Positions 2 to 2,492 of a stretch of 47,218 bases of DNA are shown here, in pieces. The stretch covers positions 1-47,218 of the forward strand of contig MGTJ01000101.1 in assembly GCA_001799395.1 (NCBI GenBank), read 5' to 3'. The translations under genes were made by a program, and so were the position numbers. The DNA is from Desulfobacterales bacterium RIFOXYA12_FULL_46_15 (GTDB lineage: Bacteria; Desulfobacterota; Desulfobacteria; Desulfobacterales; Desulfobacteraceae). The notes below the pieces were generated by a model. It was not told the DNA's origin. It saw nothing but the letters and a program-made list of their open reading frames with translations, and did no database searches. The first letter of the stretch is position 1. Every line of letters starts with the position of its first letter.

Positions 2-1273
2 GTCACAGCGGTTTTTGCAAAAAATCAAAAGCCTGATGAAACAGACATCCTTCATGTCACGGTTCGCAGGACAAAACCGGCCAAAGAAAAGCTTTACTTT
101 GAATTAGACCACTATGATTTTCATAAAGTACCTTTTAAAGACGCCTTAAAAAGCAGGCTTGTCTGGAAAGCCAATTTGCTGGGAGGCGGCAGGTTAAGAC
201 AGCTTTTGGACAGGCTGGAACCTATCCGGAGTTTTGGTGCATTTTTATCTGAAAAAGAACGGGATGAGGAGGGGGGGTGGAAAATTGCAGAGGGATTTAT
301 CGTTGGAAATGAAGAGGAAATTGATACGCTTGTCAAATTGAAGAAAAAAGCTCCGGAATTAACAGATGAGGAAAACCTGAAGTTGCAGGAACTTGAAAAG
401 AAGTTTCAAACAGCAGAATACCTTACCGGGAAAAATACACTGCCCACGGATGCCTTCACAGAGGATGGCATCAATGACAGTAAAATTGACAAACTTGAAA
501 ACAAGTATTTCCTTCGAAATAGAAAAAAGAATAAAGAGATTTTTCAAGCCCCTCACCTTCTGATAAAGGAAGGGGTGTCGGAAAATTCCATTCCAGTAAT
601 ATTTCGGGAAGACGATCTTTCTTTCAGGGATCAAGTAATCGGTATTCATGCTCCGAATCAAGCCGAGGCCCTCAAAAAAATTGAAAACCGGTTCAGGAAT
701 AACAGAACATATCTTTTTCATGTTGCCGGATTCAGTAGTAAGTATATGATAAAAAGGGCTACGGCCATCTTAAAGCACGATATTGAAAGTCTGCCATATC
801 CTGAGGATGAAAACGAGCTTAATCTATCTGATCTCGAACAAATTCTCATGGATGACGTGCTTGATTATATGCTTGATTTCAGGAGAAAAGGCGAGAGTGC
901 GGACTCGGAAAAACCGGTAACACAGGGCCAGTTAAAACAATTTTCCAATGTCTATTGTAAGGTTTTAAATTCTGTTTATAAAAATCTCAAGCCATATCAC
1001 TATTTTGAAACCGGATCATATATCTGCTTTCCCTTTTATTTTGACGACCCTTCATCCATCGTACTCCAAAGAACTGAGAGACTTGAGGATGATCTTGATG
1101 AACTCATCAAAAATAATGTGCATTCAAATGCAAGAATCATTAGAATGCTTCGGATCTATGAAAACAATATTATTTATCTTATTAAACCCAAGCAGACGCG
1201 CTACTGGTTACGATCGGTTGCAATCCGGGATGCTGACGAAACCTTTTCTGATTTAGTGACCCAAGGGTTTTAA
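2..1273 (+). CDS. N-6 DNA methylase, C-terminal part (runs in from outside the window)
   Basis: The frame is open from base 2 to the stop at 1273, so the gene starts upstream and about 423 C-terminal residues are visible. The visible part resembles the region after the catalytic domain of large adenine-specific DNA methylases of restriction-modification systems. It has the segment VWKANLLGGGR, a charged helical linker (ELTDEENLKLQELEKKF) and then a target-recognition-like segment (QAPHLLIKEG, SFRDQVIGIHAP). The catalytic motifs (NPPY and SAM-binding) would lie upstream and are not seen. The next gene begins 2 bases after the stop and looks like a nuclease, which fits a type I/IIG-like or related modification module. 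The internal ATG at 176 is not the true start. Family assignment is by resemblance only. Confidence 0.7.
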   Translation, partial: VTAVFAKNQKPDETDILHVTVRRTKPAKEKLYFELDHYDFHKVPFKDALKSRLVWKANLLGGGRLRQLLDRLEPIRSFGAFLSEKERDEEGGWKIAEGFIVGNEEEIDTLVKLKKKAPELTDEENLKLQELEKKFQTAEYLTGKNTLPTDAFTEDGINDSKIDKLENKYFLRNRKKNKEIFQAPHLLIKEGVSENSIPVIFREDDLSFRDQVIGIHAPNQAEALKKIENRFRNNRTYLFHVAGFSSKYMIKRATAILKHDIESLPYPEDENELNLSDLEQILMDDVLDYMLDFRRKGESADSEKPVTQGQLKQFSNVYCKVLNSVYKNLKPYHYFETGSYICFPFYFDDPSSIVLQRTERLEDDLDELIKNNVHSNARIIRMLRIYENNIIYLIKPKQTRYWLRSVAIRDADETFSDLVTQGF

Positions 1274-1275
1274 TA

Positions 1276-1983
1276 ATGTTCAATGAAAAATATGAATCAG
1301 AAGTATCCGGCAGATTATCCGGGCCGTATACACCTGAGTTTGACACATCGATCAACGAGGTGATTTTATTCATAGAAAAAAATCTCATTATTTTTTCCGA
1401 ATCTATTGCCGTATCTCAAATTCAAAACGAAAAAGGCCTCACGCAAACACTTGTCGAAATTCTTAATTTAAACGCCAGAAGAGGATTTTCACCCTTCTGG
1501 TTTGAAAAAGAGTATATGGAAAATCCAGACAGGGGCGACAGCCCCTCAGTCGATATAGGTACCTTAAAAATTGATGACAGCGGCAATGTTATCAATTCGG
1601 TAGTTCTTGGAAATAAATCTTTTTTTTCCATGGAGGCCAAGAGGTTGCCCACACCAGGGAGTAATAGAGAGAAAGAATATGTAATCGGTTCAAAAAACAA
1701 TGGCGGTATTGAGCGCTTCAAAACCGGGAAGCATGGATCAGCTTTAAAACACAGTGGGATGATTGGATTTATTCAGAAAAATGATTTTAAATACTGGAAT
1801 AAAAAAATTAACGACTGGGTTGTTGAGTTGGCTCAGGCAAATACCAAATCTGATATAAACTGGTACGAATCCGAGATTTTAATTCCCAAGCATTTTAAAA
1901 CGACCACAGCTCAATTGATTTCGAAACACGAACGAATGAACAAATCATACATAACTCTGTGTCATTTATGGGTATGCTTATGA
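1276..1983 (+). CDS. PD-(D/E)XK nuclease-like protein beside the DNA methylase
   Basis: The 235-residue protein starts 2 bases after the methylase stop, so the two are probably co-transcribed and translationally coupled. It contains a plausible PD-(D/E)XK core: SVDIG with Asp93, then a strand with Glu120-Ala-Lys122 (FSMEAKRLP). This is the usual spacing for type II-like endonucleases. The C-terminal SKHER...ITLCHLWV resembles the ending of small restriction-like nucleases, so the ORF appears complete rather than frameshifted. Its likely role is DNA cleavage, or an accessory nuclease, in a restriction-modification or phage-defence unit with the upstream methylase. No exact family name can be given from the sequence alone. 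Confidence 0.6.
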   Translation: MFNEKYESEVSGRLSGPYTPEFDTSINEVILFIEKNLIIFSESIAVSQIQNEKGLTQTLVEILNLNARRGFSPFWFEKEYMENPDRGDSPSVDIGTLKIDDSGNVINSVVLGNKSFFSMEAKRLPTPGSNREKEYVIGSKNNGGIERFKTGKHGSALKHSGMIGFIQKNDFKYWNKKINDWVVELAQANTKSDINWYESEILIPKHFKTTTAQLISKHERMNKSYITLCHLWVCL

Positions 1984-2008
1984 TTGGCGGAATTAAGGCG
2001 ATTAAACA

Positions 2009-2191
2009 ATGAATCTGATTTTGGAAAAATCTTACAAACTCTGTACCAGGCTTTCTGATAATTTTTACAGAAAACCGTCAAAAAAGGAAACTTGGCTATC
2101 GGGCTTTGGATCTGAACAAAAAATACACCTCCCCAAATCTTTAGAAATATTCAGAACTATATATCATGACATCGAAGAATCTGAATTCTGA
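2009..2191 (+). CDS. Small hypothetical ORF downstream of the nuclease
   Basis: Sixty codons start 25 bases after the nuclease stop. The ORF overlaps the next ORF by 26 bases in another frame. Composition is ordinary for a soluble protein (Lys/Ser/Glu rich), with no signal peptide, membrane segment or recognisable motif. There is only a weak upstream purine tract (AAGG about 13 bases before the ATG). It could be a real small partner of the restriction module, the remains of a longer gene, or chance. Confidence 0.3.
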   Translation: MNLILEKSYKLCTRLSDNFYRKPSKKETWLSGFGSEQKIHLPKSLEIFRTIYHDIEESEF

Positions 2192-2492
2192 TAGAATGAG
2201 ACAAATTGTATACTTGTCCCGAATAGAAAATTTAGCCATCCTTTGGCCCGGCGACTTTCATGCATTAGCCCTTTTCATTCTTCGTTCTTTTGATGCCACA
2301 GACAGGGAGGTTAACAAAAAAAATAAAACCAGCATACAGAAGTCTCGTCCAACACTTCACGGACTTGCCGGTGATTTCTCTAGGCTGACAAAAGTGCCAA
2401 ATTTTATTGTTGAAAGAACGATTAAATCATTGGGATTAAATCTTGGAGCAACAGTTGACTTTGACCCCGATTCATCTATGCAAGATGTCTGA
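2166..2492 (+). CDS. Hypothetical protein at the end of the restriction-like module
   Basis: This ORF has 108 codons. There is no ribosome binding site before the ATG at 2166; the ATG at 2196 (MRQIVYLSRIENLAILWPG) is an equally possible start. The middle is moderately hydrophobic (LAILWPGDFHALALFILRSF) and is followed by a basic segment and a helical stretch ending in FDPDSS. I do not recognise the family. Its position directly after a methylase and nuclease suggests an accessory role in that module, but this is context only. Confidence 0.45.
   Translation: MTSKNLNSDRMRQIVYLSRIENLAILWPGDFHALALFILRSFDATDREVNKKNKTSIQKSRPTLHGLAGDFSRLTKVPNFIVERTIKSLGLNLGATVDFDPDSSMQDV

What the first reader, a model, noticed from the sequence alone, without database searches (positions are those of the whole stretch)
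2..2492. Methylase-nuclease-unknown module, a possible restriction or phage-defence unit
A DNA methylase end is followed 2 bases later by a small protein with a PD-(D/E)XK core (Asp93, Glu120, Lys122) and then two small unknown ORFs. This compact arrangement is not a standard type I or III system as far as can be seen, and the small ORFs could be accessory components.
Basis: partly seen in the sequence, partly recalled or inferred. Interest (0 to 1): 0.5.

Follow-up and report, generated by a model that had tools for sequence, protein, structure and literature searches.

The report
Restriction system with separate, methylase-guided nuclease
The two genes at this contig edge are the tail of a DNA methylase and the small DNA-cutting enzyme that travels with it; related copies suggest that the methylase, not the cutter, picks the site to cut, an unusual split of labour in bacterial restriction systems.

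Summary
The window starts inside a methylase (423 of about 994 aa; contig edge); 2 nt later comes an intact 235-aa protein with D93/E120/K122, identical in 45 of 45 family rows. The pair is a conserved module in Desulfobacterota, Bacteroidota and alphaproteobacterial plasmids. The nuclease has no Pfam, NCBIfam or PADLOC match above cut-off and no PDB-sequence match; its predicted fold is nearest BglII/BstYI, at modest Z. The methylase is Type IIG-like, but its N-terminal nuclease-like domain shows no conserved ExK in 40 copies. The 60-aa ORF is a remnant of a transposase-like gene and the 108-aa ORF a separate family; neither is an accessory part.

In eight Bacteroidota copies the presumed target-recognition domain was exchanged between methylase backbones while the nuclease stayed with its backbone. 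A nuclease with its own specificity should not tolerate that, so I infer cutting in trans at sites chosen by the methylase: methylation+specificity in one protein, cleavage in the other, with no constant ATPase partner. Cleavage, target and protein contact are untested. New variant of a known kind.

The parts
2..1273 (+). C-terminal 423 aa of a roughly 994-aa gamma-class N6-adenine methylase with fused specificity region; the first 570 or so residues lie beyond the contig edge
   Evidence: 91% identical to the end of the intact G008 protein
197..844 (+). Part of the methylase that corresponds to the exchangeable, presumed target-recognition domain (L017 residues 655-850)
   Evidence: mapping; exchange shown in Bacteroidota relatives, not in this copy
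1276..1983 (+). Separate 235-aa PD-(D/E)XK-type nuclease, the presumed cleavage component
1552..1554 (+). Asp93 codon, predicted metal ligand
   Evidence: 45 of 45 rows identical
1633..1641 (+). Glu120-Ala121-Lys122 codons (ExK of the predicted active site)
   Evidence: E and K identical in 45 of 45 rows
2009..2191 (+). 60-aa remnant of the C-terminus of a 232-aa transposase-core-like gene that is intact in G008; not part of the module
   Evidence: dN/dS 0.41 over 58 codons
2166..2492 (+). 108-aa ORF of an unrelated small family; not part of the module

Best explanation
This is a two-gene restriction-modification system in which one large protein carries methylation and target recognition and a separate small PD-(D/E)XK protein carries cleavage. 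The methylase (N-terminal nuclease-like domain without a recognisable active site, gamma-class methylase core, C-terminal target-recognition domain) binds its site; methylated sites are left alone or maintained, and at unmethylated sites the small nuclease, held by or recruited to the methylase, cuts. Shown: gene pairing, conservation and selection, conserved D...ExK in the small protein, the IIG-like layout of the methylase with no conserved ExK in its N-terminal domain, and exchange of a C-terminal domain without exchange of the nuclease in Bacteroidota copies. Inferred: that this domain sets the target, that the nuclease depends on the methylase for site choice, that the nuclease-like domain is the docking surface, and that the window's copy (nuclease 31-35% identical to those Bacteroidota ones) works the same way.
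For: Pairing: adjacent genes in 21 of 23 loci examined, gaps -44 to +5 nt (which looked for exactly this arrangement); the other two are a copy with broken frames (L038) and a contig that ends in the methylase (L007). In 12 of 12 further genomes found through the nuclease a large ORF is next door (two of them identical). The 20 plasmid records whose methylase covers 80% or more of the query are the same 20 that match the nuclease. A profile of distant nucleases, run on 345 genomes, hit 9; 2 end at the contig edge and the 7 others have a methylase-like ORF (NPPW or NPPF motif) upstream, one of them broken. Fold: BglII Z 7.7 (rmsd 4.2, 135 aligned), BstYI 7.1, OkrAI 6.8. Methylase N-terminus: DrdV cleavage region Z 7.7 and 7.1, HsdR 6.4, BpuSI 6.3, no conserved ExK in 40 rows. 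Domain exchange: region 661-840 is 53.8-86.6% identical within class (12 pairs) and 32.6-41.3% across classes (16 pairs), while the nuclease spans 50.0-82.9% within and 49.6-82.9% across. L013/L017: N-terminus 97%, nuclease 83%, this region 40%. The nuclease tree rejects both classes as clades (AU p 4.7e-9 and 1.3e-52), and the region's tree rejects the nuclease clade (p 6.4e-5). In six loci, 28 methylase columns track the class, 27 of them in 640-860 (columns absent from L017 counted in), and no nuclease column does. A review states that in type IIG enzymes domain exchange changes restriction and modification together, and calls such change unusual for restriction enzymes as a whole (PMC4081073, section 'Type IIG' read).
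Against: No biochemistry. That the exchanged region is the target-recognition domain rests on its place after the methylase motifs and on its variability; no target is known. Z values of 7-8 can be chance arrangement (tool note), and Foldseek found nothing at E 1e-3 or better. In the methylase N-terminus some acids are conserved (E46 in 37 of 39, D75 in 32 of 40) and the Asp of 'VDAVYV' is kept in many rows though not in 70%, so an atypical active site is not excluded. Exchange was clear only in one Bacteroidota group; alphaproteobacterial and Desulfobacula pairs show none, and L079/L081 and L074/L080 diverge more in this region but also in the nuclease (52% and 40%). No fused methylase-nuclease was seen among 9 profile hits.
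Confidence: 0.6

Rival explanations
1. Ordinary type II (IIP-like) system: a gamma-class methylase and an independent nuclease that recognises the same sequence on its own.
For: M and R as separate genes is the classical layout; the nearest folds are the type IIP enzymes BglII, BstYI and OkrAI; monomeric gamma-methylases with fused specificity serve such systems (PMC3874165, one section read).
Against: The domain class changes at least four times on the nuclease tree (two is the minimum for three classes), and in six loci no nuclease column follows the class; an independent nuclease would then cut unprotected host DNA. The methylase has an N-terminal part of about 300 aa with a nuclease-like domain, whereas M.TaqI (about 420 aa) begins with its catalytic domain.
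Confidence: 0.25
2. True type IIG enzyme whose own N-terminal domain cuts, with the small protein as an accessory second nuclease (one strand each).
For: PADLOC IIG models match the methylase (143.2 bits), and a distant relative matches one nearly end to end (272.6 bits, residues 12-1023 of 1032); the N-terminal fold resembles the DrdV cleavage region.
Against: No conserved ExK in the N-terminal domain of 40 methylases, nor, by my reading of the alignment, in the 8 distant ones, whereas the small protein keeps D, E and K in 45 of 45 rows.
Confidence: 0.08
3. The nuclease is a modification-dependent or stress-activated effector guarded by the methylase rather than a partner in ordinary restriction.
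For: Structural neighbours also include McrC and the abortive-infection effector NucC at Z 5.8-6.0.
Against: No sensor or second-messenger gene family recurs among the neighbours; one-to-one pairing with a methylase of exchangeable specificity is the signature of restriction.
Confidence: 0.05

Closest known systems
Type IIG/IIL restriction enzymes (DrdV, MmeI, BpuSI)
   Same: Layout of nuclease-like N-terminus, gamma-class methylase and C-terminal recognition domain; domain exchange
   Different: No conserved ExK in the N-terminus; D...ExK lies in a separate protein
PADLOC families PDLC03603 and PDLC03623 'REase_MTase_IIG'
   Same: Best PADLOC matches of the methylase; the three distant relatives scanned (L040, L048, L049) reach 170-273 bits, L049 nearly end to end
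   Different: Each of these has a small D...ExK protein next door, so the one-protein label is probably incomplete
Type III systems (Mod + Res)
   Same: Methylation and specificity in one protein, cleavage in another
   Different: Res is a helicase-nuclease (recalled); here the nuclease is 205-254 aa and no helicase family recurs
BglII, BstYI, OkrAI (type IIP nucleases)
   Same: Closest predicted fold of the small protein
   Different: No sequence similarity detected; site choice appears not to lie in the small protein
BREX (PglX) and MADS (MAD2) methylases
   Same: Similarity of the methylase core (65 and 59 bits)
   Different: Far below curated cut-offs (500 and 720); no constant partner genes

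Membership tests
PD-(D/E)XK nuclease superfamily | D...ExK active site on a beta-strand pair | tested here: met
   45 of 45 rows identical, on predicted strands 91-99 and 117-124
PD-(D/E)XK nuclease superfamily | Shared core fold with known members | tested here: inconclusive
   Best Z 7.7 and the top rows are mostly restriction nucleases, but Z below 8 and no Foldseek hit at 1e-3
Type IIG | Gamma-class N6 methylase core | tested here: met
   Eco57I and N6_Mtase Pfam matches above cut-off in the intact homologue
Type IIG | Cleavage domain in the same chain as the methylase | tested here: not met
   N-terminal domain has no conserved ExK in 40 rows; D...ExK lies in a separate gene
Type IIG | One specificity module serves methylation and cleavage | tested here: inconclusive
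   Domain exchange without nuclease exchange supports it; no target is known
Type IIP | Nuclease recognises its site independently of the methylase | tested here: inconclusive
   Exchange pattern argues against it; needs biochemistry
Type I / Type III | ATP-dependent helicase-translocase subunit | tested here: not met
   None in the pair; no helicase family recurs in 30 loci, though one ATP-binding (AAA) family is near 3 of 30, on different sides and strands. The distantly related G078 pair does have an SNF2 helicase downstream. Neighbours were not scanned with profiles.
BREX / DISARM | Constant set of signature partner genes beside the methylase | tested here: not met
   No neighbour family recurs in more than 5 of 30 loci; PglX models far below cut-off

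The most novel reading that the evidence does not exclude
A widespread, unannotated class of restriction systems without a motor, with the partition 'methylation+specificity' plus 'nuclease in trans': an ancestral type IIG enzyme lost catalysis in its own nuclease domain, kept it as a docking or pairing surface, and delegates cutting to a small partner that has no specificity of its own, so that one recognition-domain exchange re-targets methylation and cutting together.
Probability: 0.45. Interest if true: 0.75.

Novelty: new variant of a known kind. Interest (0 to 1): 0.6.

Why it matters
Some methylases that databases label 'type IIG' may be only half of the enzyme, with the cutter hidden in the next gene as a hypothetical protein; that would change restriction annotation, methylome interpretation and transformation work. 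If the small nuclease takes its orders from the methylase, the pair would be a compact system in which target choice and cutting sit in separable proteins and specificity changes by moving one domain. The exchange pattern makes that directly testable.

Tried and rejected
Foldseek with the nuclease and with the methylase N-terminus found nothing at E 1e-3 or better. Searches of PDB sequences with the nuclease, alone and as a profile, found nothing; phage records hold no nuclease relative at E 1e-3; the 108-aa ORF gave no relative in viral contigs. Pfam gave the nuclease only matches below cut-off (HTH_55, E 0.027 and 0.036; for L014 also UBL_AVO1, E 0.0011). A neighbourhood scan for a third conserved gene gave 9 families that recur at all, the largest a short ORF upstream in 5 of 30 loci; read in five plasmids it is 61-64 aa and ribbon-helix-helix-like by my reading, and of two scanned in Pfam one gave a match (RHH_10, E 0.0071) below cut-off. 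No fused methylase-nuclease among 9 hits. No clear domain exchange in alphaproteobacterial, Desulfobacula and distant pairs. Nine paper searches were answered; in their listings (titles, starts of abstracts) I saw no description of this arrangement, but most subscription journals and REBASE are not held. I considered that the frame break in the G013 nuclease shows decay; it lies at a T run in a contig whose title gives coverage 3.1, so it may be a sequencing error.

Limits of the counts: the co-variation analysis used 25 loci and 43 (window and L020 left out as partial); the column test used six loci; the tree tests used 9 loci and classes chosen after the exchange was seen, so their p-values describe a pattern found first and tested afterwards. 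Three rows with late start calls were left out of the N-terminal count, which lists columns conserved in 70% or more. Of the 12 distant plasmid methylases I opened 11 (H50 not opened): 10 have a D...ExK protein next or next but one, and one (R. etli, H47) is a truncated methylase without it. Of the 20 plasmids with the close pair I opened 13; in one the methylase is annotated in two pieces (L088) and in one (L091) no ORF of 180 aa or more follows the methylase as nuclease. From (28 of 58 genomes matched, many weakly) I opened the 8 strongest not already known; 6 continue past the methylase and all 6 have the small ORF, three of them short or cut by a contig end.
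Full report
What is there. The window is an entire contig (C101 of the 250-contig genome G000). Base 2 to 1273 is the last 423 aa of a methylase; two bases later a 235-aa ORF starts. The missing 5' part gave no convincing match elsewhere in the assembly. A same-genus genome in one contig (G008) holds the intact version: 994-aa methylase, nuclease 2 nt downstream, 91% and 93% identical to the window. The intact methylase matches Pfam Eco57I and N6_Mtase, with DPACGSG at 364 and NPPF at 477; the window begins at residue 574, so it shows only the specificity half.

The small nuclease. D93, E120 and K122 are identical in 45 of 45 rows (window included), as are E52, Y135, R147, H153, W174, S216 and H230. 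The AlphaFold2 model (22 sequences, mean pLDDT 82.5) puts D93 on one strand and E120/K122 on the next. Structure comparison ranks BglII (Z 7.7, rmsd 4.2, 135 aligned), BstYI (7.1) and OkrAI (6.8) on top, then mostly other nucleases of this fold; such Z values alone do not prove kinship, and Foldseek gave no hit at 1e-3. Pfam has nothing above cut-off, NCBIfam and PADLOC nothing at all, and PDB sequences give no match. dN/dS against G008 is 0.10, so the gene is maintained or was until recently.

The module. In one search, which looked for exactly this arrangement, 21 of 23 loci have the two genes adjacent with gaps of -44 to +5 nt; the others are a copy with broken frames (L038) and a contig that ends in the methylase (L007). 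In 12 of 12 genomes fetched through the nuclease a large ORF is next door (two of these loci are identical). The 20 plasmid records with a methylase covered by 80% or more are exactly the 20 that match the nuclease, all alphaproteobacterial, among them 4 Agrobacterium and 2 Sinorhizobium plasmids, 8 of 20 typed conjugative. Other loci come from Aminicenantes, Acidobacteriota and Planctomycetota assemblies. The neighbourhood differs: among 278 neighbouring ORFs of 30 loci, the largest recurrent family (a short ORF upstream in plasmids) is in 5, and an ATP-binding (AAA) family is near 3, on different sides and strands. By my reading of translations, type I methylase genes lie near the module in L004 and L037. 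The module is uncommon: 6 of 97 genomes among relatives by the nuclease, own genome included, 5 of 397 in the family and 11 of 398 in the genus of the Flavobacterium soli genome.

A wider class. Twelve plasmids had a more distant methylase. I opened 11; 10 have a 200-240 aa ORF with D...ExK next or next but one, and one is a truncated methylase without it. Their nucleases (with one from G078) align with the close family at 98.3% probability, E 1.5e-14. A profile search with them over 345 genomes of the phylum gave 9 hits; 2 end at the contig edge and the other 7 have a methylase-like ORF upstream, recognised by NPPW or NPPF, one broken. Going the other way, from a distant methylase, 6 of 6 loci that continue past the gene have the small ORF, some short or cut. 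One distant methylase (L049) matches PADLOC's 'REase_MTase_IIG' PDLC03623 nearly end to end, so a one-protein type IIG label fits proteins that have a nuclease next door.

Is the methylase itself a nuclease? The N-terminal 314 residues of a relative were modelled (18 sequences, pLDDT 81.9, pTM 0.62). The first 165 or so align with the N-terminal region of the type IIL enzyme DrdV (Z 7.7 and 7.1), with a putative restriction endonuclease domain (9y1l, Z 8.3), HsdR (6.4) and BpuSI (6.3); that this DrdV region is its cleavage domain is recalled. Across 40 methylases no ExK is conserved there: the strand that would carry it reads mostly PQxYIYD, and the preceding Asp is kept in many rows but in fewer than 70%. 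The simplest reading is a nuclease domain that has lost catalysis. Conserved E46 and D75 keep an unusual active site possible.

Who chooses the site? This separates an ordinary type II pair from a methylase-guided one. Among nine Bacteroidota loci, methylase residues 651-850 fall into classes: A {L013, L014, L018, L022}, B {L015, L016, L017, L072} and C {L011}, while the conserved backbone blocks of the eight A and B loci are 75-93% identical whatever the class. For these eight, region 661-840 is 53.8-86.6% identical within class and 32.6-41.3% across, without overlap; the nuclease is 50.0-82.9% within and 49.6-82.9% across; rank correlation with nuclease identity is 0.84 for the backbone and 0.13 for this region. 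L013 and L017 are 97% identical in the N-terminal 160 residues and 83% in the nuclease, but 40% here. Nuclease and backbone trees reject the classes as clades, and the region's tree rejects the nuclease clade (classes named after the pattern was seen). Of ten 3-against-3 splits of six loci, the class split has 28 methylase columns, 27 within 640-860, and no nuclease column; the backbone split has 19 and 13. So a variable domain at the place of the target-recognition domain was moved between backbones while the nuclease stayed.

Meaning. Pingoud and co-workers write that in type IIG enzymes domain exchange changes restriction and modification together, and that restriction enzymes as a whole tend to immutable recognition (PMC4081073, section 'Type IIG' read in full); exchange of recognition domains in type I and III systems of H. 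pylori is described in PMC3983042 (passages). An independent nuclease would cut host sites that the new methylase no longer protects. I therefore favour a nuclease that acts in trans at sites read by the methylase. No ATPase is a constant partner, so the partition resembles type III (methylation+specificity / cleavage) without its motor. That the classes recognise different sequences, and that the two proteins touch, is inference.

The two small ORFs. G008 has a 232-aa gene overlapping the nuclease end. Its middle aligns with 557-566-aa ORFs in G073, G297 and G249 (22-30% identity) and with phage ORFs annotated as transposase A (best E 7e-5); that the catalytic acids are not kept, and that the type is Mu-like, is my reading of the alignment. 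The window keeps only about its last 58 residues. The 108-aa ORF is a separate small family with relatives on a Calothrix plasmid and in G116. Just downstream the window shares a degraded stretch with a Fic-like gene of G013 (my reading of the DNA).

Novelty. Nine answered paper searches showed, in their listings, no description of this arrangement; the review parts I read (PMC3874165: one section and search passages; PMC4081073: one section and passages) describe fused type IIG enzymes and monomeric methylases of type II systems, not this. REBASE could not be searched, and its curators may well list these genes as putative. I rate it a new variant of a known kind.

Noticed in passing
L036:12610-13308 (G008); window 2009-2191; L037 and L038 downstream of the nuclease: A free-standing protein resembling a transposase core, apparently without its catalytic acids, follows the module in four related genomes, intact in G008 and shortened or broken in the others; a related 208-aa ORF occurs alone in G066.
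   Followed up: partly
window 2166-2492: 108-aa ORF with a 45% identical homologue on a Calothrix plasmid and a weak one (119 aa) in G116; function unknown.
   Followed up: partly
G000:C193:4016-5293 (L093): The window's own genome carries a second, distant methylase of the same wider class, cut by a contig end, so its nuclease neighbour could not be checked.
   Followed up: partly
L040 (G078:C204): A distant methylase-nuclease pair is followed by a 930-aa SNF2 helicase, an ORF of 509 aa and a DUF3326 protein; possibly a larger defence locus.
   Followed up: partly
L043-L047, upstream of the methylase: A 61-64-aa ribbon-helix-helix-like ORF precedes the methylase on five alphaproteobacterial plasmids and could be a controller protein.
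   Followed up: partly
window about 2590-2720: Degraded stretch similar to the end of a Fic-like gene that is longer in G013 at the same place.
   Followed up: no
L071:3659-7353 (pRSB223): A distant copy with the methylase annotated as two ORFs (719 and 281 aa) followed by the small nuclease, beside a class 1 integron with resistance genes; it may be a separate specificity subunit or a broken gene.
   Followed up: no
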